Origin: a virus
Virus record (IMG/VR): IMGVR_UViG_3300044833_000060
Coordinates: 1 to 64,000 of that record
Reading direction: 5' to 3' (one strand)
DNA length: 64,000 nt
This document shows positions 5,804-42,380 of this stretch, piece by piece. A program made the position numbers and the translations under genes. The notes below the pieces were generated by a model. That model was not told the origin of the DNA. It did no database searches and saw only the letters and a program-made list of their open reading frames with translations. Positions within the stretch are counted from its first letter, which is position 1. The number at the start of each line of letters is the position of its first letter.

Positions 5804-6331
5804 CTAGTAGCCGTAGAAGGGGGCACTATCGTCTGTGGATTTAAGCGCCGCTGCCAACGCCTTCTGCTCCAAGCGGCTGCGAAATTCGGCGGCTGTTTGT
5901 GAACCCTTACTGGAGTTACATGGTCTGCAAGACGGCACCAAATTATCAATTGAATTACTACCTCCCCTTGACAGCGGTTGAAGATGGTCCTTGGTGATAT
6001 TCCGGCCGCTCAATTCCAACTCGCACCAGTAGCAGAGGTAGCGAGCAAGTACAAGTTTCATAAGCCATTCCCGTTTAGTGTGCGTCCCCGGAAATGCGTA
6101 CAAGACAACTCGATTAGTCCTATCCTTAATCCACTCAAGTCTCCCATCCACCACCCGGTAGTACTGCTTTCTGCACTTAGCGGAGTGCCAAAGAACCCGC
6201 TTACTCCGCGTTATAAACTGCACCCCACATGGGCATGTCAGGATCTTCGCGAGGGAGTCTTTCACGTTCCATCGCTTCATCAGGGCAACCGCCTCCGGAA
6301 TGATCACGACCCTGTTATTGTCTCTGTACAT
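5804..6331 (-). CDS. HNH endonuclease, 175 aa
   Basis: The C-terminal half holds a full HNH motif: 'CYWCELELSG' zinc knuckle, 'ITKDHLQPLSRGGSNSIDN' with the catalytic His, and 'LVPSCRPCNSSKG'. The N-terminal half has a second Cys cluster (CPCG...CRKQYY), a likely DNA-contact zinc finger. The protein ends in Pro-Phe-Tyr-Gly-Tyr, like several late proteins (see findings). It may be a homing endonuclease or a functional nicking nuclease. Confidence 0.9.
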   Translation of the reverse strand: MYRDNNRVVIIPEAVALMKRWNVKDSLAKILTCPCGVQFITRSKRVLWHSAKCRKQYYRVVDGRLEWIKDRTNRVVLYAFPGTHTKREWLMKLVLARYLCYWCELELSGRNITKDHLQPLSRGGSNSIDNLVPSCRPCNSSKGSQTAAEFRSRLEQKALAAALKSTDDSAPFYGY

Positions 6332-17422: not shown

Positions 17423-17977
17423 ATGAGAACCTACCGCCAGGCATCCGGGATTTTACAAGATTCCATAGGCAAGACCATCGGCGTTGGTTACTCAGGCCAG
17501 CCGCCTCACACCAACAATCCTGCAGACGAGGGATTAGATGGCTTAGGGCCAATTCCTTGCGGCATCTGGAAAATGACATCTTTGGAATTGACGACTGAGA
17601 AACACGGCCCGGATGTAATCGTGCTTGTGCCTGACTTTGTAACCCGCATAAGAATTATCGCTTCTGGCCGCGATCCGGATTCTTTTCGAATGCATGGCGA
17701 GCGCACAAAGCCGCCGGCCGGATTTGCCTCGGATGGCTGCATCATCATGCCGCGGCAAGTTCGAATGGAATGCTGGAACTCAAATGACCATGATTTGCAG
17801 GTAATACACCAACAGCCCCAACTGCCAGTTAATTTCGACTGGCCCACGCCGCCCGTTGATCAATGCGGGGTCGGGGCTGCACTGATCAATTTGTGGCAAG
17901 CTCAAATTGAATGGATTGGCAAAGTGGGGATCGGTCCGGTGCCCAACGTGCCTAAGCCGCCTACTGAAGAAGAATAG
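17423..17977 (+). CDS. DUF2778 / L,D-transpeptidase-like protein
   Basis: 184 residues. 'GLDGLGPIPCGIWKM' and, later, 'FRMHGERTKPPAGFASDGCI' followed by 'IMPRQVR' match the DUF2778 (Tlde1) pattern. Its catalytic His lies in HG and its Cys in S-x-GCI, both at about residues 93-108. Tlde1-type enzymes cut or exchange D-amino acids in peptidoglycan. Placed after holin-like genes, it is the best candidate for the endolysin or a cell-wall-modifying enzyme. No signal peptide, so it would need the holin for export. Confidence 0.75.
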   Translation: MRTYRQASGILQDSIGKTIGVGYSGQPPHTNNPADEGLDGLGPIPCGIWKMTSLELTTEKHGPDVIVLVPDFVTRIRIIASGRDPDSFRMHGERTKPPAGFASDGCIIMPRQVRMECWNSNDHDLQVIHQQPQLPVNFDWPTPPVDQCGVGAALINLWQAQIEWIGKVGIGPVPNVPKPPTEEE

Positions 17978-17992
17978 CAGTCTGGGGAGCAA

Positions 17993-18556
17993 GTGAGTTC
18001 GCCACTAAGCAGGAAACAAAAACGCGCTCGATTTGTTGCGGAGTACCTAGTCGATGGAAACGCTACAAGAGCCGCGCAGGCAGCAGGTTACAGCAAAAAG
18101 ACCGCTTACTCGGCTGGTGGCCGCCTGTTGAAAGATGTTGAAATTAAGCAATTACTTGTTGAAAAGAATGCTGCAATTAACAAGAAATTAGAAGTTTCTG
18201 TTGAGAGAGTTCGCGATGAGTTAGCGCGGCTTGCCTTCTTTGACCCTCGCAAGTTCTTCAAAGAGGACGGTTCGCTTGTGCCAATCACGGAACTCGATTC
18301 CGATACTGCAATGTGCTTGGCGGGCATGGAAGTCAATGAATTGTATGAGGGGCGCGGCGAAGACAGAGAACTAATCGGCTATGCGAAGAAATTCAAACTA
18401 GCCGACAAGGGACAAAATCTTGAGCGCCTCGGGCGATACCTGAAGATGTTTACGGATCGCGTGGAGGTTGTACCTGACGCCGACTCTACAGAGCGTCTTG
18501 CAAGCCTACTCACCCGAGCGGCTGGCAGGGCTAGTCAAGCATCTTCACCCCGATGA
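17993..18556 (+). CDS. terS: terminase small subunit
   Basis: 187 residues. 'LSRKQKRARFVAEYLVDGNA' then 'TRAAQAAGYSKKTAYSAGGR' is the N-terminal HTH that recognises packaging DNA. 'VERVRDELARLAFFDPRKFF' then gives the typical linker and beta region of Terminase_2 small subunits. GTG start. It overlaps the large-subunit gene by 89 bases. Confidence 0.9.
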   Translation: MSSPLSRKQKRARFVAEYLVDGNATRAAQAAGYSKKTAYSAGGRLLKDVEIKQLLVEKNAAINKKLEVSVERVRDELARLAFFDPRKFFKEDGSLVPITELDSDTAMCLAGMEVNELYEGRGEDRELIGYAKKFKLADKGQNLERLGRYLKMFTDRVEVVPDADSTERLASLLTRAAGRASQASSPR

Positions 18557-19211
18557 ACAGCGTGAACTGGCGGACATTCTTGAGCAGGAAGAAAACCGCA
18601 CGGTTTGGGATGACATTGGAATCAGGGAAGCATCTTGGGAACGCGGTCCATTACTGTGGCTGACACAGCATACCAAAACCGAAGATACCCACTGGATGGA
18701 TACGGGAACGGAATTCCGCGTGCCGTTTCCCCGGAAGTCTTATTTGCGGGTAGTCATGCAGTATCTGTTGAGCGACAAAGTTGTCTTCCTGCAGAAGTCG
18801 CGCGAGATGCTCATGAGTTGGCTGGTATGCGGATTTATTACATGGGAATGTCAATGGTATCCGGTCTTCTGGCTGGCGCAAACCGGCAAAGAGGACAAGG
18901 TCGCGGAGTTGATTCAATATGCCCGGACTTTATATCAGAACCAGCCGGAATGGATGCGCAAGCGGAATCCGTTAGTTGTAGACAACGAATTGGAATTAAC
19001 TTGGCGCGCCGGCGGACGTTTTCTGGGAGTGCCGAAGGGAATGGATCAGGCAAGAATTCACCATCCCAAAGGCTACTTCCAGGACGAATCGGCGTTTCTG
19101 CCGGAAGCTCAGCAAGCCTTTGACGCTGTACGGCCAGTCTGCCGGCAAGTGGTATGTGTGAGTACGGATGAGATTGGATGGTTTCACAATGAATGCAAAT
19201 TGGAGGGTTAA
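18468..19211 (+). CDS. terL: terminase large subunit, ATPase half
   Basis: 247 residues, opening 'YSPERLAGLVKHLHPDEQRE'. The Walker-A-like segment is 'VVFLQKSREMLMSW' (about 105-118) and the Walker B 'GYFQDESAFLPEAQ'. The coupling motif 'VVCVST' is followed by 'GWFHNECKLEG' and a stop. Complete terminases continue into a nuclease domain. Here that domain is a separate gene 2.2 kb downstream (21448). TTG is the likely start. No frameshift or intein motif is seen at the break. Confidence 0.85.
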   Translation: MYLTPTLQSVLQAYSPERLAGLVKHLHPDEQRELADILEQEENRTVWDDIGIREASWERGPLLWLTQHTKTEDTHWMDTGTEFRVPFPRKSYLRVVMQYLLSDKVVFLQKSREMLMSWLVCGFITWECQWYPVFWLAQTGKEDKVAELIQYARTLYQNQPEWMRKRNPLVVDNELELTWRAGGRFLGVPKGMDQARIHHPKGYFQDESAFLPEAQQAFDAVRPVCRQVVCVSTDEIGWFHNECKLEG

Positions 19212-19212
19212 G

Positions 19213-19815
19213 ATGCGAAGCAATCGACTGATTGGTTTTACGATAGCGCTGCTTGTATTTTCCGGCGTGGCGGCTTTGGCGCAGTGGGGCGCGGGCGGAG
19301 TTTGGACCGTCCCGTCTGGCGGACTCTATTTGAACTGTCCAGCAAATTCTTGCTCGGTCACAGGGCAGACATTGAACTTTCCCGGACTCAGCGCCAAAAG
19401 CCAACTGCTGGCGGATTCGGCTGGTTCTGCTACGACGGCGCTTGTGAATAGCGGCATTTCCTTCCCGCTAGCGGCTGGCGAAACAGGCACTCTCGATTGC
19501 GAGGTCTTATTCACCAACGGCAGCGGTGGTGGTTTGACTTTGGCCATCAATGGTCCAGGAACGCCGACTCAGGTCAGTATTCATGGTTCGATTGTGTCGG
19601 CGGTCACGACTACAAACCAATACTACTCACAAGGCGCGACCTGGGCCGTGGCTCTCGGTGCTGCCACGAGTACGGTAACCACAATTCAATCCGCTAGGAT
19701 TACGGCGGGTATTGAGAACGGCACTACGGCAGGAACGCTGGCTCTCCAGTTTTCCGATGTCAATACGACCGGATCAACGGTGATCAAGCGCGACTCTTGG
19801 TGCTCGTTCCCGTAG
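19213..19815 (+). CDS. secreted protein with fibre-tip-like domain, 200 aa
   Basis: 'MRSNRLIGFTIALLVF' and 'SGVAALAQ' form a Sec signal peptide. The C-terminal ~120 residues start 'FPLAAGETGTLDCEVLF' and end 'STVIKRDSWCSF'. They resemble the C-terminal domain of the fibre-like protein at 50265 ('FTLPLLATNWTMDCDLV...LTIYRGASC'), a beta-rich jelly-roll type tip. First gene of the cassette that separates the two terminase halves. Confidence 0.75.
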   Translation: MRSNRLIGFTIALLVFSGVAALAQWGAGGVWTVPSGGLYLNCPANSCSVTGQTLNFPGLSAKSQLLADSAGSATTALVNSGISFPLAAGETGTLDCEVLFTNGSGGGLTLAINGPGTPTQVSIHGSIVSAVTTTNQYYSQGATWAVALGAATSTVTTIQSARITAGIENGTTAGTLALQFSDVNTTGSTVIKRDSWCSFP

Positions 19816-19833
19816 AAAGGAACTGTTTTATAT

Positions 19834-20022
19834 ATGAAGGCAAAGATAAAGACAACACAGTACACAGGTTTCTCTATTGGCGACACTGTCCGCCTAAATA
19901 GTGGAAGTCCGACTCTCACTGTCGTGGCTATCCATGACGGTGATCTGTCAGTCGGCTGGATCGATGTTAATGGGCTTCAGCGCCTAAGTTTGCCTGCTGC
20001 TTGCTTTAATAAGATTCTGTGA
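19834..20022 (+). CDS. DUF2158 (YodC-like) small protein, 62 aa
   Basis: 'FSIGDTVRLNSGSPTLTVV' then 'GWIDVNGLQRLSLPAACF' follow the DUF2158 pattern: G-D-x-V-x-L-x-S-G-x-P-x-M/L-T-V, then a Trp/Cys-containing strand. The role of the family is unknown. It overlaps the methyltransferase gene (GTGA). Confidence 0.75.
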   Translation: MKAKIKTTQYTGFSIGDTVRLNSGSPTLTVVAIHDGDLSVGWIDVNGLQRLSLPAACFNKIL

Positions 20023-20525
20023 TTGACCGCTGCCTCTTCACGCCGAACGGCGACAATCCTCCCTCTCCAGTTCCCTTGGATGATCTTTGCACTGTTCCAA
20101 CAGAGGAAATGGCGCACCTGTTAGCCGATCTAATCACGGCCAATATGCCATTGGATGTTCTGGAGATCGGGACAGGCTCTGGCTATCAAGCGGCGATTCT
20201 CGCGCAGCGCTGCAGAAGTCTTGTGTCCGTGGACGTAAAACTCCAACCTGGCGTAGCGGAGAAACTCCCAAGCAATGTGGCCATCGTGATTGCGGACGGC
20301 TACGAGTTCGACAGTGGCGAGCAATTCGACGCGGTGCTAGTGACGTTCGCCGCCAGCCGCTTGGCATCATCGTGGGTCCAGCAAACGAAGATTGGCGGCC
20401 GATTAGTAGTCCCCATGCAAATGGCTACAGGCTGTCGCATCTCAGTCTACGAGCGAACGGAAGTAGGCGTGAACCTGCTTGACGTGGCGGCCTATGCACC
20501 ATTTACGCCGGGAGCGGAAGCGTGA
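20019..20525 (+). CDS. protein-L-isoaspartate O-methyltransferase-like enzyme
   Basis: 168 residues. 'VLEIGTGSGYQAAILAQRC' is SAM-binding motif I of PCMT. 'LVSVDVK' (motif II-like), 'AIVIADGYE' and 'FDAVLVTFAAS' follow in order. Host enzymes are ~208 residues; this one lacks part of the N-terminal substrate cap, and 'CTVPTEEMAHLL' replaces the usual S-A-P-H-M segment. It may repair aged Asn/Asp in virion proteins, or methylate another target. GTG start. Confidence 0.85.
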   Translation: MIDRCLFTPNGDNPPSPVPLDDLCTVPTEEMAHLLADLITANMPLDVLEIGTGSGYQAAILAQRCRSLVSVDVKLQPGVAEKLPSNVAIVIADGYEFDSGEQFDAVLVTFAASRLASSWVQQTKIGGRLVVPMQMATGCRISVYERTEVGVNLLDVAAYAPFTPGAEA

Positions 20526-21100
20526 GTTTCTCGCATCCGGCGCAACGCTCTCATAAGTTTGCAGGTATGGCCGCGGCGGCAAATTCACCCAACACTCCCG
20601 CACATCTTCGAGCACATCTTCATAAGCGAGTCAAGGAGGCAGGTATGGCAGGACGCGTGGACAACCTTCGCAGACCATCAGGCAAGGTTCCAGTACAAAC
20701 GACTCTAAAAACTACTGACGCGGCTGATGAATCTTTGCAGACGGCAACCGATCCTTCCCCGTTTCGGGACACCAATAACTCGACCGCAATGCCGCGCATG
20801 GGAACTACCACGAAACAGCCCTCGCCTGCCGGCACCAGGCCGATGAGCGTTAGCGCCACAGTGAAGACTCCCAAAGCGCCAGGACTCGTGACGTCGCAGG
20901 GAGCGGTGCGCAATAGCCGCCCCGCCGCCAAAGGATTGAATCAGAGCCTGAACGTGGATCGTCGGCAGCCGCGCGCATCCGGTCTGAATGTCACGGTAAG
21001 TCCAGTGCTCAAGACTCATAAAATGACCGCCGTTCCAGCGCAGTCGAATCGCAATGTGCGCAAAGGCAGCGCGAACCCAGCCTTCTACGGCGATTTCTAA
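20522..21100 (+). CDS. disordered basic protein ending in PAFYGDF, 192 aa
   Basis: Low-complexity, rich in Pro, Ser, Thr, Arg and Ala, with an N-terminal helix 'TPAHLRAHLHKRVKEAGMAG'. The C-terminus 'NPAFYGDF' matches the P-x-FYG endings of proteins at 37761 and 42147. GTG start overlapping the methyltransferase stop. Probably a virion-associated or scaffold-type protein; function unknown. Confidence 0.65.
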   Translation: MSFSHPAQRSHKFAGMAAAANSPNTPAHLRAHLHKRVKEAGMAGRVDNLRRPSGKVPVQTTLKTTDAADESLQTATDPSPFRDTNNSTAMPRMGTTTKQPSPAGTRPMSVSATVKTPKAPGLVTSQGAVRNSRPAAKGLNQSLNVDRRQPRASGLNVTVSPVLKTHKMTAVPAQSNRNVRKGSANPAFYGDF

Positions 21101-21106
21101 CGTCTG

Positions 21107-21448
21107 ATGTTGTACCTGATTGCAGTCCTATTACTCGCATCTCTCTATCTCATCCTTAAGGGGAAATTCAATATGCAGGCAAAGTTCACTATCACATTTA
21201 CGGATTCCGCTGCGCCTCCGCCTCCCATTCAGCTTGCAACCACGAGCTTCAATGGTGTGGTCGGGGTTCCGGAAAGCGGCAGCCTCGGGCCGAGCGGCGG
21301 CAATGGCGGACCATTCGTTGTCACGGTTGATCCGACTACCCCACTTCCGGATGGAGTGACGATTGACGCACAAGGGACTGTCGCGGGAACTCCAACGGTT
21401 GCCGGCAGCACTTCAGTGAATGTCATAGTGGCCGATTCGCAAGGCTAA
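21107..21448 (+). CDS. membrane-anchored Ig-like (He_PIG type) protein, 113 aa
   Basis: The hydrophobic N-terminus 'MLYLIAVLLLASLYLIL' is followed by one Ig-like domain with 'PLPDGVTIDAQGTVAGTP' and 'AGSTSVNVIVADSQG'. This matches the putative-Ig (He_PIG) signature L-P-x-G-x-x-x-x-x-x-G-x-x-x-G-T-P. A second possible start at 21173 would give a soluble protein. Its TAA overlaps the ATG of the terminase nuclease half (TAATG). Confidence 0.7.
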   Translation: MLYLIAVLLLASLYLILKGKFNMQAKFTITFTDSAAPPPPIQLATTSFNGVVGVPESGSLGPSGGNGGPFVVTVDPTTPLPDGVTIDAQGTVAGTPTVAGSTSVNVIVADSQG

Positions 21449-22518
21449 TGTCTAGCAGTCCAATCACCGCTTGCGTTCCGACCTTCCCTCATCCGGGGAT
21501 TCGTGTGCATACCAACCGGCACGGCAATACCGTGTTGCGGCTGCATTACGAAGCGGATGAGGACAAGGGACGCGGGGACAAACTATTAGTTCCTGAAATC
21601 AATCGTATGTTGTCGCCGTGGGCCTTTGGGCAGTTCGGGCAAATGACTGACCCTAACGCTTACCTTCGGGAATACGAGATTGAGGCTGAAGCCGCGCTTG
21701 GTCGCCTAATCTTCAATTTAGACGAAGAGGCCACCTGCGAAGAATCTTTCCCGATTCCTCCAAAATGGACGCGGCGCATGGCGCTCGATCCCCATCCGAG
21801 CGTTCCCCACGCAATGCTATGGGCGGCAACCGACCCGTGGGGAGACCGATGGTATTACCGGGAACTATGGCCATCGCGCGCGTGTTATCGCTATGACGGA
21901 GGCCGTCTCTATGGAATCCCCGGCGCCTGTCCTGACGATGAAGCGGTAATGCGCATCAAGGATTATGTCGAAACCATTCAATGGCTCGAATCGGCGAAGA
22001 ACCCACAGAACGTGGACAATACTGTGCCATTCGATGAAAAGATTTCTGCGCGCGTCATTGATTATGCGGCGAGAGCTTTCGGACAAGGCACCAACGACGA
22101 CCCCGACCAGCCCAATTTTCAACGCAGATTTGAGCAGTACATGTGCTCCCCGGAATTGCGCGTATCCTGTCCGGTATTTCAGGACGCAAAAAAGGATCAT
22201 GATGTGGGCTTTGAGATGGTCAATGCTGGGCTCAAGGCACGAGAAGTACAAGGGCCTAGGGATACGAAGATCAGGCGCAGCCGCATTCATATCTTTCGCG
22301 ATCAGTGCCCAGAACTGATCTTCCAATTGAAAAACAACCGTCGCCAGCAATTGTCTCCAGCGCAAATGCTAACCAAAGATCCAACTGGTAAGCCAGTCGA
22401 TGTGCGTCGGCACATGACAGACAACCTTCGCTATTTGGAAATGGCAAACCCGGTCTACTTAAATCCCTCGGCCCCGAAGAGTACCTGGAAACCTTTGGCG
22501 GATGGAATCGCTTATTAA
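21448..22518 (+). CDS. terL: terminase large subunit, nuclease half
   Basis: 356 residues. 'GIRVHTNRHGNTVLRLHYEA' is the segment that normally follows the ATPase domain. 'RRMALDPHPSVPHAMLWAAT' carries the first metal-binding Asp of the RNase H-like nuclease, 'RVIDYAARAFG' a second, and 'RRHMTDNLRYLEM' the likely third. Together with the upstream half this gives 603 residues, the length of an undivided enzyme. It has its own ATG, translationally coupled to the preceding gene. Confidence 0.85.
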   Translation: MSSSPITACVPTFPHPGIRVHTNRHGNTVLRLHYEADEDKGRGDKLLVPEINRMLSPWAFGQFGQMTDPNAYLREYEIEAEAALGRLIFNLDEEATCEESFPIPPKWTRRMALDPHPSVPHAMLWAATDPWGDRWYYRELWPSRACYRYDGGRLYGIPGACPDDEAVMRIKDYVETIQWLESAKNPQNVDNTVPFDEKISARVIDYAARAFGQGTNDDPDQPNFQRRFEQYMCSPELRVSCPVFQDAKKDHDVGFEMVNAGLKAREVQGPRDTKIRRSRIHIFRDQCPELIFQLKNNRRQQLSPAQMLTKDPTGKPVDVRRHMTDNLRYLEMANPVYLNPSAPKSTWKPLADGIAY

Positions 22519-24750
22519 ATGCCTGAAGTAACCGATCAACAGTCAGCCTCGCGCGGGTCTGAGACTGGCGTGGTCTCTGACATCATCATGCGCCGCGATG
22601 AGTCCAAGAAATGGCTGCGTCTCAACTACTGGGATGAGTGGATTGACACCTGGCGGATGATTAAGTGCCGCACCAAACCTATTCATAAAGTCGATTCCGC
22701 CGGCAAGGACACCAATGAAGAGGATAAATCCCGCACGAATGTGGAAAGCGGTCTGGCGAACCTGATCTTCCGCAAGAACGTCGCGCGATTATCAGCTCAG
22801 CCATACACCCTGCGCGTGCGCGGCGGCAGTGATCCCACACGGGCAGCGCGCCTGAGTTCCTTACTAGGTCAGCAATACGACCAATCCCAAGAGCGCGCGG
22901 AAGATGTTCGGGTGCGCATGGCCTCGGAATCGTTAGGTATCGGGATTTCCAAACTCTACTGGGACTTTGTTTCCCGAACGATGGTTTTTCGCAAGGCCGT
23001 CTTACATAACGGGAAAGTCGTATTTCGCGACCGTTCACAGTTCATGAAGTCTGCGGGCGCGAACGATACCGAGACCCAGCAGGCGGTCAAAGAATTAGGC
23101 CCCGATATGTCGGATGATGAAGTCCAGGACTTCATGGGGAAAAGTGGGACAGAAATTACAGTTCCGCAGTCGGTCGAGAAGTATGAAGGCCCACGGGTTA
23201 AGGCCTGCTTCCCTGGGGATGTGTATTGGGAGCCGTTTGCGAGAACCTTACGCCAATCCAGCTTCGTTATTGAAGCCTACCGCGAAACCGATCTCTGGTT
23301 AAAGAAGATGCTGGGCTTGAAATATAAAGATCCGGAAACCGGGCAAATGCTGAAGGCGTTTGATGCCGAGGCCGTGGCTGGCCTCATGCGTCTCGACCCC
23401 GAGCCAGTTGTGATGAAAGGCGAATTCCAGGAGCTTAAGGATTTGTTCCGCACGGCGATTGGCAAGCAGGATCAGGTGCAATACCAATTCCCCCGCAACC
23501 TGCGCGTGCGCAAACTCTACGACATTTTAGAAGAGCACAAGCAGGATGACGAAGGTCGCATGTGGATTACATGGGTATCGGAAAACTACCGAGACAGGGT
23601 TCTGGGAAAGATGCCGTATCCATTCGAGTTTTACGGAGACACGGCGTTTACCGACGAAGTACCGCTGCCTGACCTGAACGATGCAATTGGGGATTCGACA
23701 CCGCGCCTTCTGCGATTCATGTTTCAGTTGTTCAATCTTCAGCACTGCCAGAACTTTGATTACATCACGCAACTAATTCGCAGGCATTTCTTCGCTCCCG
23801 CCGGCATGGAGTTCTCCGAAGAGACGATCGAGCGCGGGAATATGAGAATCACTCGCGTAGCCAATGGGCGTCCGGGTGACCTTCAGCCGGATCAGACTCC
23901 TCCGATTCCCGAGGGCGCGATGGAGCGAGGGGCTGCTCTCATGCAACTGATTGGCATGTTTGAGCCGTCCTTGAACACCACGACGGACGGAACGTCGTTC
24001 AATCCTCAAGCCTCAAAAACCGCAACCACTGCGGTATTGCAGGCGAAGGCCGCTGACGTATTACTGGCATTCAAGATTGATGGCCGTGATCTGTATCTCT
24101 ATCAATTAGGCATGAAGAAAATCTGGATGAACCAGCAAATGGCCGATATGGATCGAGACTGGGAAATTCAATCGAAATATTTCGGCCCACAATTAAACGA
24201 CGCACTAAAAGGACAACCGCAAGGAGAGGAAAAGCCGCAGTGGATCACTACCGATCAGTCCGGTAAAATCGCCTCGGTGAAGTTAAGTCCTACGGAAATT
24301 CAGGAAGATTTTGAATGTGAACCCGAGTCCGGTTCCTACATGGCTGTCGATGATGACCTGCGCCGCCAGGCAGCGGTTGAATTGGATCAGGTAGCAATGC
24401 AATCCGGCGGGTTGCTCGATATGGCGAAGGTTCTGACCAATCATCTGAAAACGATAAAGGGCATAGATGATCCGGAATCGTTCTTCGCGCCGCCGAAGCC
24501 TCCAAGTCCGCCGCCGCCTAAAATTAACGTCTCGCTGACCGGAAAACTTGAAGACATGCCGGAAGTCACTGCTGTCCTTCTTCAGGAGATGGGAATTGTG
24601 CCCCCTCCTGCTCTCGCGCAAGAGTCGCAGTTAAATACGCTTGGCCGAGTCAGTCAAGCTGCCGACCATGCCTCGAATCTTTTAAGTCCCGCCGATCCGC
24701 ACGCGGAAGGCGGACCCTTAGGAACGGCTGAAAGTGAAGTAGGTGCTTAG
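22519..24750 (+). CDS. portal protein, 743 aa
   Basis: Begins one base after the terminase stop. The N-terminal third ('WLRLNYWDEWIDTWRMI', 'TNVESGLANLIFRKNVARLS'), the long helical middle and the acidic/Pro-rich C-terminus fit large P22-type portals (~725 residues). The segment 'FDYITQLIRRHFFAPAGMEF' resembles the stem/crown region. It would form the dodecameric ring at the capsid vertex. Position between terminase and scaffold supports the call. Confidence 0.88.
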   Translation: MPEVTDQQSASRGSETGVVSDIIMRRDESKKWLRLNYWDEWIDTWRMIKCRTKPIHKVDSAGKDTNEEDKSRTNVESGLANLIFRKNVARLSAQPYTLRVRGGSDPTRAARLSSLLGQQYDQSQERAEDVRVRMASESLGIGISKLYWDFVSRTMVFRKAVLHNGKVVFRDRSQFMKSAGANDTETQQAVKELGPDMSDDEVQDFMGKSGTEITVPQSVEKYEGPRVKACFPGDVYWEPFARTLRQSSFVIEAYRETDLWLKKMLGLKYKDPETGQMLKAFDAEAVAGLMRLDPEPVVMKGEFQELKDLFRTAIGKQDQVQYQFPRNLRVRKLYDILEEHKQDDEGRMWITWVSENYRDRVLGKMPYPFEFYGDTAFTDEVPLPDLNDAIGDSTPRLLRFMFQLFNLQHCQNFDYITQLIRRHFFAPAGMEFSEETIERGNMRITRVANGRPGDLQPDQTPPIPEGAMERGAALMQLIGMFEPSLNTTTDGTSFNPQASKTATTAVLQAKAADVLLAFKIDGRDLYLYQLGMKKIWMNQQMADMDRDWEIQSKYFGPQLNDALKGQPQGEEKPQWITTDQSGKIASVKLSPTEIQEDFECEPESGSYMAVDDDLRRQAAVELDQVAMQSGGLLDMAKVLTNHLKTIKGIDDPESFFAPPKPPSPPPPKINVSLTGKLEDMPEVTAVLLQEMGIVPPPALAQESQLNTLGRVSQAADHASNLLSPADPHAEGGPLGTAESEVGA

Positions 24751-26758: not shown

Positions 26759-28003
26759 ATGGCAGAGCAGGCAATCCGAACATTTCAGGACTATCAGACG
26801 GAAGGCACTCTGGTACGAGATGTCAGCGTAGACATGCTGCTTCTTGAGCCAGATCGCACTCCGCTATATGTTCTCACCAATAATTCCAAACGCAAGAAGA
26901 GCGTTTATAACCCCATCTTCGAATGGCCGGAGGATCAGGATTTGCCGATGCTGGGAACGGTTTCTAACGGAACCACCGCCTTGTCTTCGGTAGCCACGGC
27001 CATTCCGGTGCAGGATGTCACCATCTTCGGCGTCAATGATATGGTGCAGGCTCCGACCACCGGCAGCATTGGCACTGGAATTGAAGAACTCATGCTTGTG
27101 ACCGCCGTCACCTTGGGCGCGGGCACTCCCTCCACTACGGCTTACCAGATCGGCGCTGTGGCGGGGACCATCACGGTCACCCGAGGCTTCGCGGCGACCA
27201 CCGCAGGCACAGTTGGGGCTACGCAAAGCCTTCGCATCCTGGCGACGGCCGCAACGGAAGGCGGGGCAATTCAACCGCCTCGGGCTCCTTACGTGACGCT
27301 GAAGACTTCGGCTTGCCAGATTTTTGAGCAACCGATTCAGATCACGCTAATGGCCGCAGCTAGCCGAACTTACTATGACCGCAACGAGCGCGCGAGATTG
27401 CAAATGCTTGCCATGCGGCGCGCCAAGCTGGAAATTGAGGATGCTGGAATCTTTGGCGTCTTTTCGCAATCGGTCAATGGAACCAGCACGCGCCTGACCT
27501 CTATGGGCTTGCGCTCCATCATCTCGCCATTTGTCACTGACATGGGCGGGACGGCAACCTATCAGTCGTTCCTGCAGGCGAATGAGTTCACCTTTCGGTT
27601 CGGCTCTCCGCAGAAGTTGCTGATTGCCTCGCCGCTGGTGAAAACCGCTCTGGATTATTTCGCCGCCGCTAAACAGTTGGTGAAACCGGACATTGATTTG
27701 TTCGGAGTTAGCCTGAAGAAGTTCGTGACCTCTAACGGAACGTTCCTTCTGGCTAACAACTTCAATATGGGCGACTACAACGCATCGACCAACTACTCGT
27801 ATGAGGCGTTGGCCATCGACCTTCCGTCACTCGAATTCTGTCCGCTTTCGGACAACGGAATTTCCTGCGATACCCAGTTGAAGACCAACTACGACACCAC
27901 CAACCCGAAACTCATCAAGGATCTGGTGTACACGCAAGCCGGATGGAGAGTCCGTCATCCTGCCCGTCACGCCCGATTCACGAACTGGACGGCATTCCAG
28001 TAA
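26759..28003 (+). CDS. major capsid protein (SU10 / DUF5309 family)
   Basis: 414 residues. 'DRTPLYVLTNNSKRKKSVYN' and 'IFEWPEDQDLPM' match the start of the SU10-type HK97-fold capsid family. The middle 'CQIFEQPIQITLMAAASRTY' and 'RAKLEIEDAGIFGVFS' is the spine helix/P-domain region, and 'PQKLLIASPLVKTALDYF' follows. The Ala/Thr-rich insertion at residues 85-165 is a likely surface loop or I-domain. A strong terminator follows the gene. Confidence 0.9.
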   Translation: MAEQAIRTFQDYQTEGTLVRDVSVDMLLLEPDRTPLYVLTNNSKRKKSVYNPIFEWPEDQDLPMLGTVSNGTTALSSVATAIPVQDVTIFGVNDMVQAPTTGSIGTGIEELMLVTAVTLGAGTPSTTAYQIGAVAGTITVTRGFAATTAGTVGATQSLRILATAATEGGAIQPPRAPYVTLKTSACQIFEQPIQITLMAAASRTYYDRNERARLQMLAMRRAKLEIEDAGIFGVFSQSVNGTSTRLTSMGLRSIISPFVTDMGGTATYQSFLQANEFTFRFGSPQKLLIASPLVKTALDYFAAAKQLVKPDIDLFGVSLKKFVTSNGTFLLANNFNMGDYNASTNYSYEALAIDLPSLEFCPLSDNGISCDTQLKTNYDTTNPKLIKDLVYTQAGWRVRHPARHARFTNWTAFQ

Positions 28004-29122: not shown

Positions 29123-30158
29123 CAACCTAGACATCCGGGACACTTCGCGATTACTGGATGATCTCAAGCGAGAAGGCGCACGCTCACGCGATATTAACCC
29201 TCTTGACCTGATCGACGCTGAGAAGAAACTGTCTCACATCCTGAAAACGGCAGAGGGAAAGGAAGCCTTTCGGCGAGTCACCGGATTGCGTGAGGCTGTG
29301 TTCGCTGGCGAAGTACAAGAGCGACAAGAGCCGTTACCGATCGTTGCCATCCTGATGCCAAGCTATAGATTGCCCGCTCCGCAAGCCTGGGAAGGCGTGA
29401 ACCGGATGATGCGGGCAAGTCTGAATGTATGTCAGCCGTTCATGGAGCCAACAATTCGACAATCGGTGGTCCACTGGACGCGCAATTTCGCGCTTAGCTT
29501 ATTGCTAAAGAGCATGAAGCCGTGGGATTACGTTCTCTTTATTGATGACGATATTGTCATGCCGGATGACGGGTTGGCGAAGATGCTGGCGCACAAAGTG
29601 GATCTAGTAGCGGCGGCTTGTACGGTTCGCGTCGATCCGCCGATGCCGAACTTCCGCGTCTACGATCCCGACACGCGACTGTTTATGACTTGCATGGACT
29701 GGAATCGGGAAGGATTGGTGGGAGGAAAGTATTTCGGGGTCGGCACTGGAGCCGCATTGTTCTCTCGTAAGTGTCTAGAACGAGTGGCCGAGTATCACAT
29801 CAATTGCGAGTATGAAAAGAAATACTACGGGCTCTCGGGAGATGTGCTCGACACACTCCAGACCGGGCGTCAGAAGAAAGCGAAAGAGACATCGGATTTC
29901 TGGTGGTTTGAGTTCCTGAAGCAACCGGACGGCCAAGGGGAATTCGGCGAAGATATCTCCTTCTGCTTCAAGTGCATTGAGCTTGGAATTCCGGTCTATG
30001 TTGATACGACCGTAAGACCAAAACACATGGGAGATTACGGATTTAACCTAGATGACTTTGTAGATATCCGCAACAGTCGCCGCGAGTTAATTGATCCGTA
30101 TTCACAGCCGGTCAGCGACCCATTAGTGGGTGCGCCGATGCAAGAGGTAACTGCATGA
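29112..30158 (+). CDS. GT-A-fold glycosyltransferase, 348 aa
   Basis: 'ILMPSYRLPAPQAWEGVNRM' opens the Rossmann-like core. 'DYVLFIDDDIVMPDDGLAKM' contains the Asp-x-Asp metal motif. 'GVGTGAALFSRKCLERV' and 'GEDISFCFKCIELGIPVYVD' match the acceptor and catalytic regions of family-2-like enzymes. It would transfer a sugar from a nucleotide donor in the cytoplasm. It forms a unit with the next two genes. The target (DNA, virion or host glycan) is not shown by sequence. Confidence 0.85.
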   Translation: MRPDNLDIRDTSRLLDDLKREGARSRDINPLDLIDAEKKLSHILKTAEGKEAFRRVTGLREAVFAGEVQERQEPLPIVAILMPSYRLPAPQAWEGVNRMMRASLNVCQPFMEPTIRQSVVHWTRNFALSLLLKSMKPWDYVLFIDDDIVMPDDGLAKMLAHKVDLVAAACTVRVDPPMPNFRVYDPDTRLFMTCMDWNREGLVGGKYFGVGTGAALFSRKCLERVAEYHINCEYEKKYYGLSGDVLDTLQTGRQKKAKETSDFWWFEFLKQPDGQGEFGEDISFCFKCIELGIPVYVDTTVRPKHMGDYGFNLDDFVDIRNSRRELIDPYSQPVSDPLVGAPMQEVTA

Positions 30159-31039
30159 AGCTAGCCGTCTTCTTTCCCGCATCTTTGTTCTCCGCATGGG
30201 CCTGTTCTTATGGGCTGGTCGATACGCTGCGGAGGATGGGGCATAAAGTAACCGCCTTGCCGGTTCATCCCGACAATCAGAATCCGCCGATAGGAGCTGT
30301 TGAAAGTGGACTTGGCGGGTACGATGGCATGATTATTTCCGGCCCTGAACACATCGCGAAAAGTGAGCGTTGCGTAGTTCTCGGGAAAAAACTGCCCACT
30401 GTCGCATGGCTGCACGAAACCGTTGAGCGTGAAGACTACGGCAAACTCGACGTGGAAGCCTTGAAGCGGAGCGCTGATATTATTTTCTGCCCCGGCATTC
30501 AGGATGAGAAGTACGGATTCCGCTACCTTCCGTTCGGAGTAGACACGGAAATCTTCAAGCCAGCCAAGACTGAGAAGACCATCGACGCTAGCTTCATCGG
30601 CTTGCTGTATCCGAAGCGCCAAGCGTTCCTGAAAGAATTAAAGCAGCACGGAATAAGTATAACTACCGGCAATGTGCAAGTGTTGGAACTCGGTGGCGTG
30701 AATCCACGGAAGACCGCCGAACTCTATGCGGAGAATATCCGGAAGATCAAAGTGTTTGTGAATCTGCCGACGCTGTCGCAATTGGCGGTGACGAAGATTT
30801 ATGAAGTAGCGGCATGCGGCACTCCCCTTCTAACGCCGGAAGTGGCGGACATGCGCAATCTGGAGTCTCTTCCAGTGTTGACCTATAAAGACGCGAAGGA
30901 ATGTGCGGCAAAGATGGACTGGGTGTTTAGCGGAAGTGCGTCCAAGGAGATGCACGATAACCATCGTCTCGAACTGCGCTGCGAAGTCTTGGTGAATGCC
31001 CTGAAAGAGATCGGCGTTCGGGAAAGCGTGTGCGCCTGA
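30155..31039 (+). CDS. GT-B-fold glycosyltransferase, 294 aa
   Basis: The C-terminal half has 'FIGLLYPKRQAFLKELKQHG' and 'VFVNLPTLSQLAVTKIYEVA' followed by 'ACGTPLLTPEVADM'. These form the donor-binding E-x7-E type region of GT4-like glycosyltransferases. The N-terminal Rossmann half begins 'MKLAVFFPASLFSAW'. ATGA overlap with the GT-A gene. Confidence 0.83.
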   Translation: MKLAVFFPASLFSAWACSYGLVDTLRRMGHKVTALPVHPDNQNPPIGAVESGLGGYDGMIISGPEHIAKSERCVVLGKKLPTVAWLHETVEREDYGKLDVEALKRSADIIFCPGIQDEKYGFRYLPFGVDTEIFKPAKTEKTIDASFIGLLYPKRQAFLKELKQHGISITTGNVQVLELGGVNPRKTAELYAENIRKIKVFVNLPTLSQLAVTKIYEVAACGTPLLTPEVADMRNLESLPVLTYKDAKECAAKMDWVFSGSASKEMHDNHRLELRCEVLVNALKEIGVRESVCA

Positions 31040-31920
31040 AAGCACTGGTTACAGGTTCAGCGGGATTCGTGGGGCGGCATCTCGTCCCGAAGTTGGAGGC
31101 GGCCGGTTACATAGTTAGTCGCAGCGATCTAACGCCAGATACCTCTCCACTTGCGCGATATGTAGAAGTTAGCGAAGCACGGTTCGGATGGGGCAATGAA
31201 CTACTTAACGGCAAAGGCCAGCGAGTTCTAGCGGAGTTTGATCTCGTCGTCCACCTCGCCGCGAACATCGTCAACGTGGATGCCCGCATGAATGGCGGCA
31301 TGGAGATGTACTCTGACATTGACATTGATCTCGCGATGTGCCGTTGGCTGGAAAAGAATCCACCAAAGCAGTGCGCCGTGCTGATGAGTTCCTGCGCTGT
31401 TGATTATCCATCCGATCCTTACTGCATTGTGAAGCGCAATCTGGAATCCTTCGCGCAGACCTTGCACAAGAAAGGCGTGCCAGTCGTCGTGTTACGCCCC
31501 TTCTCAGGCTATGGAGAAAATCAGAGCGAAGAGTATCCCTTCCGCGCAATTCTGGAGCGAGTCAAGCGCGGCGACAATCCGGTCACCGTGTGGGGCGGCT
31601 CTCAGGTGCGCGACTGGATTCATATTGACGATCTGACAGACGCGATCCTGTTTGCAATTAAGGAACTGCCGCGCCGACCGGAGCCCGTAGAGGTTGGGAC
31701 GCGGCGTGGAATCTCCTTGCGGGATGTCGCGAGCGCGATGCTGCGCACTGCGGGAAGCGATGCCGCGATTGTATGTGATGAAACCAAGCCTGCTTCGTCC
31801 GCACGGCGCGTGGCCGGGGAAAATGGCAACGCGATCTTACAGACATGGGGGTGGACTCCGAAGATTAGCCTGGAAGCTGCGATCTCCCGAGCACTGGAAG
31901 GAGTTTCATGCCGCCAGTAG
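31030..31920 (+). CDS. NAD-dependent sugar epimerase/dehydratase (extended SDR)
   Basis: 296 residues. 'VTGSAGFVGRHL' is the NAD-binding Gly motif and 'VVHLAANI' the next strand. 'MSSCAVDY' and 'YCIVKRN' give the catalytic Ser and Tyr-x3-Lys, and 'RPFSGYG' and 'RDWIHIDDLTDAI' the sugar-binding region. It converts a nucleotide sugar (GalE/RmlB-like class), presumably for the two transferases upstream. GTG start. Confidence 0.9.
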   Translation: MRLKALVTGSAGFVGRHLVPKLEAAGYIVSRSDLTPDTSPLARYVEVSEARFGWGNELLNGKGQRVLAEFDLVVHLAANIVNVDARMNGGMEMYSDIDIDLAMCRWLEKNPPKQCAVLMSSCAVDYPSDPYCIVKRNLESFAQTLHKKGVPVVVLRPFSGYGENQSEEYPFRAILERVKRGDNPVTVWGGSQVRDWIHIDDLTDAILFAIKELPRRPEPVEVGTRRGISLRDVASAMLRTAGSDAAIVCDETKPASSARRVAGENGNAILQTWGWTPKISLEAAISRALEGVSCRQ

Positions 31921-37760: not shown

Positions 37761-38057
37761 ATGGGTGGATCACTTGGCGGCATCTTCAGTAACGAGGGGC
37801 AGGGCGATGACTTTAACAGCGCCACAGGCCAGTACGGCCCATCGACTATGCAAAAGCTCGTGCAAGGCATGGCCAAGGGTGCAGGGCAAGATGTCGGTAA
37901 AGCCATGCAGCAACCTGCGGGGCAGGGCGGCGGCGGCGCTGGCATACCGGGCGCTCCACCAGCCTCTCCGGTGGATGCCGGATACTTTGCCCCTTCGGCA
38001 CTTCCACAGCGCCAAGCGATGCCTCCTGGATCTCCATCACCGTTCTACGGACAGTAA
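37761..38057 (+). CDS. Gly/Pro-rich virion-type protein, 98 aa, ends PFYGQ
   Basis: It starts 'MGGSLGGIFSNEGQGDDF' and ends 'PPGSPSPFYGQ'. The N-terminal M-G-G-x-L-G is shared with the gene at 38629, and the P-x-FYG end with genes at 20522 and 42147. Disordered. The HNH gene on the other strand overlaps its last 13 bases. Confidence 0.65.
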   Translation: MGGSLGGIFSNEGQGDDFNSATGQYGPSTMQKLVQGMAKGAGQDVGKAMQQPAGQGGGGAGIPGAPPASPVDAGYFAPSALPQRQAMPPGSPSPFYGQ

Positions 38058-42146: not shown

Positions 42147-42380
42147 GTGGGAGGTATTCCAGCTCGCAACTTTCCCTTCCCCTCAGCCATTGGGAACTCG
42201 CAGAACGTTTCACCCTTGGTTACTCCCCAAGCGCCTACACCGAATGGTTCGGGAATGAATGCGGCTCAAGCATCACCTGGAATTCCTTCGACTCCGAACG
42301 CGCCAACCATGCCAATTGCTTCACCAGTGCGAAATCCAATTAGTCCGGTGCGCATGCCGTCGCCTGTTTTCTACGGATAG
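42147..42380 (+). CDS. Pro-rich virion-type protein, 77 aa, ends PVFYG
   Basis: It starts (GTG) 'MGGIPARNFPFPSAIGN' and ends 'RMPSPVFYG'. Disordered, Pro/Asn/Ser-rich. Shares the M-G-G start with genes at 37761 and 38629 and the P-x-FYG end with 20522 and 37761. Function unknown. Confidence 0.6.
   Translation: MGGIPARNFPFPSAIGNSQNVSPLVTPQAPTPNGSGMNAAQASPGIPSTPNAPTMPIASPVRNPISPVRMPSPVFYG

What the first reader, a model, noticed from the sequence alone, without database searches (positions are those of the whole stretch)
18468..22518. Large terminase split into ATPase and nuclease genes by a five-gene cassette
The ATPase half (18468-19211) ends right after the coupling motif. The nuclease half (21448-22518) starts at the segment that normally follows. 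Together they make 603 residues, the size of an intact enzyme. Between them are five complete, translationally coupled genes: secreted fibre-tip-like protein, DUF2158, PCMT-like methyltransferase, a disordered P-x-FYG protein and a membrane Ig-like protein. No intein, intron or homing nuclease is visible in the cassette. Both halves have proper start codons and intact motifs, so this looks like a working two-chain terminase rather than decay. Motifs and order are seen; function of the split enzyme is inferred.
Basis: partly seen in the sequence, partly recalled or inferred. Interest (0 to 1): 0.9.

Follow-up and report, generated by a model that had tools for sequence, protein, structure and literature searches.

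The report
Two-gene phage DNA-packaging motor
A large group of uncultured soil-type phages makes the enzyme that pumps DNA into the phage head as two separate proteins, cut inside its engine domain, and in many of them other genes have moved into the gap.

Summary
The window (an IMG/VR phage contig) encodes its large terminase as two chains: 18468-19211 and 21448-22518, with five unrelated genes between. It is neither decay nor an assembly error. About 20 related contigs show the same break at the same residue, with 1.2-5.6 kb between the halves. Two further clades share the break: one with the genes directly adjacent (gap -4 to +23 nt, all three reading frames), including Acidobacteriota MAG contigs; one with unrelated cassettes. 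Nearest outgroups are intact (575-588 aa). Both halves are under strong purifying selection, each occurs once per genome, and catalytic residues are conserved. One correction: the cut is not at the ATPase/nuclease hinge. Chain 1 is only the P-loop core (T4 gp17 99-303); chain 2 carries the ATPase lid, linker and nuclease. ATP hydrolysis on one polypeptide must therefore move a lid on another. A second finding: in the window's clade the cassettes encode at least ten unrelated small proteins sharing a C-terminal F[F/Y]G tag (Fisher p about 8e-19). A precedent exists (Gordonia phage Nyceirae, split at the hinge), so this is a new variant of a known kind. That the two chains work as one motor is inferred.

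The parts
17993..18556 (+). Terminase small subunit (TerS), overlaps chain 1
   Evidence: Pfam Terminase_2 E 1.2e-30; phrog_51 E 1.2e-29
18468..19211 (+). Terminase chain 1: ASCE (P-loop) core of the ATPase only; TTG start (18498 TTG also possible)
   Evidence: AF2 model pLDDT 90; VIA Z 21.8 to T4 gp17 residues 99-303 and aligned to D6E 9-188; K110, R112, D206, E207, S232 invariant in 23 relatives
19213..19815 (+). Cassette gene 1: secreted protein, N-terminal signal peptide; homologue first in the L035 cassette
   Evidence: Shine-Dalgarno GGAGGG lies in the last codons of chain 1
19834..20022 (+). Cassette gene 2: small protein, DUF2158-like (weak)
   Evidence: Pfam PF09926 E 8.4e-4, under cut-off; phrog_3261 E 2e-6
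20019..20525 (+). Cassette gene 3: PCMT-like methyltransferase; family found in 10 cassettes
   Evidence: Pfam PCMT E 4.3e-16; family F1
20522..21100 (+). Cassette gene 4: conserved N-terminal block, disordered variable middle, C-terminal tag AFYGDF; the one cassette gene found in 18 loci of the clade
   Evidence: family F0, alignment A8
21107..21448 (+). Cassette gene 5: N-terminal hydrophobic segment plus Ig-like domain (weak)
   Evidence: Pfam Ig_SIBA-E_2nd E 0.014
21448..22518 (+). Terminase chain 2: lid subdomain and linker (about residues 1-84) plus RNase H-like nuclease (82-338)
   Evidence: AF2 pLDDT 80; VIA Z 18.6 to D6E 234-416, Z 12.7 to T4 gp17 361-562; D114 and D325 invariant in 25 rows, D205 invariant in the window clade
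22519..24750 (+). Portal protein (SU10-like), directly after chain 2
   Evidence: Pfam SU10_portal E 8e-5, phrog_1216 portal E 2.4e-5
26759..28003 (+). Major capsid protein (SU10-like)
   Evidence: Pfam SU10_MCP E 1.7e-26
37761..38057 (+). Gly/Pro-rich protein with the same C-terminal tag (SPFYGQ), outside the cassette; homologues in relatives

Best explanation
This is a two-chain large terminase. Chain 1 is the ASCE ATPase core; chain 2 is the ATPase lid, linker and RNase H-like nuclease. The two chains most likely bind each other after translation, at the core-lid face that is intramolecular in ordinary terminases, and five such pairs form the motor on the portal; ATP hydrolysis in chain 1 then moves the lid of chain 2 and through it the DNA-gripping nuclease domain. 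Shown: the split, its position, its conservation, selection on both halves, single copy, intact motifs. Inferred: assembly, stoichiometry and activity. The split is old and independent of the cassettes: once the two genes lay stop-to-start, the junction became a landing place for other genes, filled separately in at least three lineages.
For: Same break in all relatives holding both halves. Sister clade with adjacent genes, gap -4 to +23 nt, own start codons, all three relative frames; same in Acidobacteriota MAG contigs. Intact homologues of 575-588 aa with the same parts in order. Complementary, non-overlapping structural matches: T4 gp17 99-303 and 361-562, leaving the 304-360 segment to chain 2; lid and linker positions from PMC5727402. 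dN/dS 0.04-0.15 for chain 1 and 0.03-0.09 for chain 2 in pairs where dS is not saturated. One match of each chain per genome in 20 contigs. TerS upstream and portal downstream. L122: one inserted Mom gene exactly at the junction, with an 11-nt repeat TGAGCGACGAG.
Against: No experiment. Sequence profiles of the halves hit known terminases only weakly (phrogs E 0.035 and 0.0038, PDB E 0.0076); the family call rests on folds, motifs and context. The lid itself is the low-confidence part of the chain 2 model. A rejoined product made by some unknown recoding cannot be excluded in the cassette clades.
Confidence: 0.88

Rival explanations
1. The halves are rejoined at RNA or protein level (self-splicing intron, trans-splicing or split intein), so the working enzyme is one chain.
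For: Split genes in phages are often introns or inteins (general knowledge); the herpesvirus terminase gene UL15 is spliced across other genes (recalled, not checked here).
Against: No Rfam match in 17500-23500; chain 1 stops within a few residues of the GWF motif in relatives, leaving no room for an intein half; the sister clade has almost no DNA between the halves; inserts share no common element.
Confidence: 0.03
2. Programmed frameshift or read-through makes a full-length protein, the split being only apparent.
For: A -1 frameshift was proposed for terL of Microbacterium phage vB_MoxS-R1 (PMC9030533); two adjacent-gene members are in the same frame.
Against: All three relative frames occur in the adjacent clade, each with its own start codon at the stop; not possible across kilobases of cassette.
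Confidence: 0.03
3. Terminase decay or misassembly; another packaging enzyme does the work.
For: The contig is not known to be complete.
Against: About 40 independent contigs; dN/dS far below 1; catalytic residues invariant; no Terminase_6N, TerL_ATPase or Terminase_3 elsewhere in the record.
Confidence: 0.02
4. The chains do not form a one-to-one composite motor: chain 1 is the motor and chain 2 a separate, exchangeable lid-nuclease used only for cutting.
For: Separate chains would allow it; the cassette could change the ratio of the two products.
Against: Chain 2 carries the lid, which in ordinary terminases pairs with the P-loop arginine of the same unit (D6E R44-Y213, PMC5727402), so the core probably needs it in every cycle.
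Confidence: 0.12

Closest known systems
T4 gp17 / phage D6E large terminase (TerL)
   Same: ASCE core and RNase H-like nuclease folds, Walker B, coupling motif, genome position between TerS and portal
   Different: One chain there; here two chains divided between core and lid; deviant Walker A with lysine at its front (lambda gpA type, recalled)
Gordonia phage Nyceirae terminase (KX557282)
   Same: Annotated as two genes, 'ATPase domain' and 'nuclease domain'
   Different: Genes overlap by 20 nt, no cassette; chain 1 (347 aa) keeps the lid and chain 2 (215 aa) starts just before the first nuclease motif, so by length and motif reading the cut is at the hinge; the other listed relatives carry one terminase large subunit gene (25 of 1721 records listed)
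Microbacterium phage vB_MoxS-R1 terL
   Same: terL in two ORFs (PMC9030533)
   Different: Authors propose a -1 frameshift; here relative frames vary and kilobases can intervene
Herpesvirus terminase gene UL15 (recalled)
   Same: A terminase gene interrupted by other genes
   Different: There splicing restores one protein; no splicing signal was found here
Phage phi29-type packaging ATPase (PMC7672431)
   Same: The usual link between the motor and an active nuclease has changed
   Different: phi29 keeps one chain with a vestigial nuclease; here both are intact but unlinked

Membership tests
Large terminase (TerL) | ASCE ATPase with Walker A, Walker B and catalytic glutamate | tested here: met
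   Fold Z 21.8 to T4 gp17; K110, R112, D206, E207 invariant in 23 relatives; Walker A is deviant
Large terminase (TerL) | RNase H-like nuclease with acidic triad | tested here: met
   Fold Z 18.6 to D6E nuclease; D114 and D325 invariant in 25 rows, D205 invariant in 18 rows and matching the ADPS segment of intact L085 by eye
Large terminase (TerL) | Lid subdomain between ASCE core and nuclease | tested here: inconclusive
   Chain 2 residues 1-84 fill the right place and align by sequence with intact L085 and L173-L180, but that part of the model is low confidence
Large terminase (TerL) | Both domains on one polypeptide | tested here: not met
   Two ORFs with separate starts and stops
Large terminase (TerL) | Gene sits between small terminase and portal | tested here: met
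Large terminase (TerL) | ATP-driven DNA packaging activity | not testable with these tools
   needs bench work
Intron-interrupted phage gene | Group I or II intron structure or homing nuclease in the insert | tested here: not met
   No Rfam hit; cassette genes are PCMT, DUF2158-like and others
Split intein gene | N- and C-intein sequences at the break | tested here: not met
   Chain 1 stops at the conserved end; chain 2 starts about 14 residues before conserved GIxVH
Frameshifted terL | Fixed relative frame and overlapping frames | tested here: not met
   Frames 0, 1 and 2 all occur

The most novel reading that the evidence does not exclude
The packaging motor is a hetero-oligomer whose power stroke passes between polypeptides, and the junction genes are not passengers: the F[F/Y]G-tailed proteins form a set recruited through one C-terminal tag by a common partner (motor, portal or prohead), perhaps as cargo packaged into the head or as tethers between the two chains.
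Probability: 0.2. Interest if true: 0.9.

Novelty: new variant of a known kind. Interest (0 to 1): 0.77.

Why it matters
[quoted passage not shown] A whole phage lineage divides it, and at the very joint (P-loop core to lid) on which the competing packaging models turn. It gives a natural test of whether covalent linkage of core, lid and nuclease is needed for translocation, and lets core and lid be supplied separately in vitro. Marker-gene surveys that use TerL profiles may miss or mis-score these phages: the sequence profiles barely reach them, and no named phage matched the window's chains.

Tried and rejected
Named phages: no tblastn match for either chain, the portal or the tagged gene 4 and no DNA match. 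Genome contigs with the nuclease profile found nothing. Introns: Rfam none. Promoters or terminators in the cassette: not above shuffles. Literature: no paper found for a 'split terminase' or a core/lid split; the library is open-access only. The idea that the GE of the tag is only a Shine-Dalgarno sequence (GGAGAG before the next ATG) explains part of the last codons, but not F[F/Y]G: F, Y and G codons are mixed (TTC 24, TTT 23; TAC 14, TAT 10; GGA 22, GGC 12, GGG 7, GGT 6). A single origin of the split excluding intact L085 is rejected by AU test (p 0.010 with near outgroups; 0.007 with T4-like outgroups), but L085 is a long branch; re-fusion and repeated splitting remain open. The first tree held one mis-framed row (L122) and was redone. 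'No other terminase' rests on this family's own profiles and three Pfam families only.

Full report
What is there. The window is 64,000 of 64,917 bases of an IMG/VR virus record. The order is TerS (17993-18556), chain 1 (18468-19211), five other ORFs, chain 2 (21448-22518), SU10-like portal (22519-24750) and, further on, SU10-like major capsid protein (26759-28003). The stated coordinates, lengths (247 + 356 = 603 aa) and motifs are right.

Is it conserved? A scan of IMG/VR with chain 2 gave 25 contigs, and the profile gave 36. Every contig found that holds both halves has them apart, with chain 1 ending a few residues after the GWF motif (...GWFHNECKR*) and chain 2 starting about 14 residues before GIxVHxN. 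This is group A: the window and about 20 distinct relatives, 46-85% identical in chain 2, with 1.2 to 5.6 kb between the halves.

Two further clades share the split. Group B (L084, L111, L112, L118, L120, L123, L124, L127, L129) has the two genes side by side, with gaps of -4 to +23 nt, separate start codons (ATGA overlaps in three) and all three relative frames. The second genome-contig scan found five relatives, all in Acidobacteriota MAG contigs. Four of them show the same adjacent pair; the fifth (L160) has chain 1 in fragments. Group C (L086, L089, L134, L164, L166-L170) has 0.76 to 3.3 kb between the halves. Intact relatives exist: L085 (575 aa) and L173, L177, L179, L180 (575-588 aa open frames).

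Tree. Rooted on the four near intact genes, the order is (C,(A,(L085 intact, B))) with starred branches. The split is therefore old. L085 is either a re-fusion, or the split happened more than once at the same joint; holding all split rows together without L085 is rejected at p = 0.010, but L085 is a long branch.

Cassettes came after the split. Group B shows that the split needs no insert. Within B, L122 alone carries one gene at the junction, a Mom protein (Pfam E 1.5e-19), and an 11-nt repeat TGAGCGACGAG stands at the start of the insert and at the start of chain 2. Cassettes of C share no gene detectably with those of A. Glycosyltransferase and epimerase genes that sit in the cassette in L006, L007 and L027 lie after the capsid gene in the window (30155-31920). 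So the junction is a landing place, filled separately in A, C and L122.

Where is the cut? Chain 1 was predicted at pLDDT 90 and matches T4 gp17 residues 99-303 (Z 21.8, rmsd 2.5-2.6, 195-197 aligned) and D6E 9-188. Chain 2 residues 82-338 match D6E 232-416 (Z 18.6) and gp17 361-562 (Z 12.7). In D6E the ATPase domain is an ASCE core plus a lid, followed by a linker at 230-241, and the P-loop arginine R44 bonds lid Y213 (PMC5727402). The lid thus belongs to chain 2, on its first 84 residues, which also align by sequence with the segment between core and nuclease in intact L085 and L173-L180. The lid part of the model has low confidence, so its fold is inferred.

Is it functional? Invariant residues include K110, R112, D206, E207 (chain 1) and D114, D325 (chain 2), with D205 invariant in 18 rows. 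dN/dS is 0.04-0.15 (chain 1) and 0.03-0.09 (chain 2) in pairs with unsaturated dS. Each of 20 contigs has one chain 1 and one chain 2 (in two contigs the chain 2 match is reported in two pieces of one frame), and Terminase_6N, TerL_ATPase and Terminase_3 find nothing else in the record. Introns, inteins and frameshifts are excluded as far as sequence can.

Mechanism. Most likely the chains bind after translation at the core-lid face, and the motor is a ring of such pairs on the portal. Hydrolysis by chain 1 would move the lid of chain 2, so the stroke passes between polypeptides. Assembly, ratio and activity are inferred.

A second pattern. In group A, cassette proteins of at least ten unrelated families end in the same tail, K/R-rich then xF[F/Y]G(E/G/Q), for example four different proteins in L018 and in L021. 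In 11 group A contigs, 21 of 286 six-frame cassette ORFs carry it against 11 of 4,462 elsewhere (Fisher 8e-19); none of 1,826 ORFs in three group B contigs and the L085 contig do; a reversed control gives 0 in the cassettes and 1 outside. Codons are mixed, so selection is on the peptide. Most of the hits elsewhere are Gly/Pro-rich proteins, about one per genome and related to each other (window 37761-38057). The one gene present in nearly every group A cassette (window 20522-21100) has a conserved N-terminal block, a variable disordered middle and the tag, which looks like a tether. The function is unknown; the guess is recruitment to a shared partner in head assembly or packaging.

Known or new? 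Two-gene terL has been seen: Gordonia phage Nyceirae is annotated so, but there chain 1 keeps the lid, and a frameshift is proposed in vB_MoxS-R1 (PMC9030533). No report of a core/lid split, of a lineage-wide split or of gene cassettes at the joint was found in the open-access library. I file it as a new variant of a known kind.

Noticed in passing
window 20522-21100; L018:3185-4457; L021:5707-6999; L027:10888-12964: Unrelated small proteins share a C-terminal F[F/Y]G tag, clustered between the terminase halves; families include DUF6496 and a weak DUF3008 match.
   Followed up: partly
window 37761-38057; 42147-42380; 5804-6331 (minus strand): Three ORFs outside the cassette also end in FYG-type tails; the first has homologues in relatives.
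   Followed up: partly
window 30155-31920: Glycosyltransferase and epimerase genes lie after the capsid gene here but inside the terminase cassette in L006, L007 and L027: genes move in and out of the junction.
   Followed up: partly
L122:4896-5468: A Mom (DNA modification) gene inserted exactly between the two terminase genes, with an 11-nt direct repeat at its start and at the start of chain 2.
   Followed up: yes
L085:5914-7641: Intact terminase nested among split ones in the tree: possible natural re-fusion.
   Followed up: partly
L084:31-5373: A 1780-aa ORF upstream of the small terminase that reads like a helicase-type N-terminal part joined to other segments; group B member L112 has a long ORF in the same place.
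   Followed up: no
L156-L160: Group B terminases sit in Acidobacteriota MAG contigs, which points to Acidobacteriota hosts.
   Followed up: partly
window 19806-19823: Terminator-like hairpin at the end of cassette gene 1; the count in the region is no higher than in shuffles.
   Followed up: no
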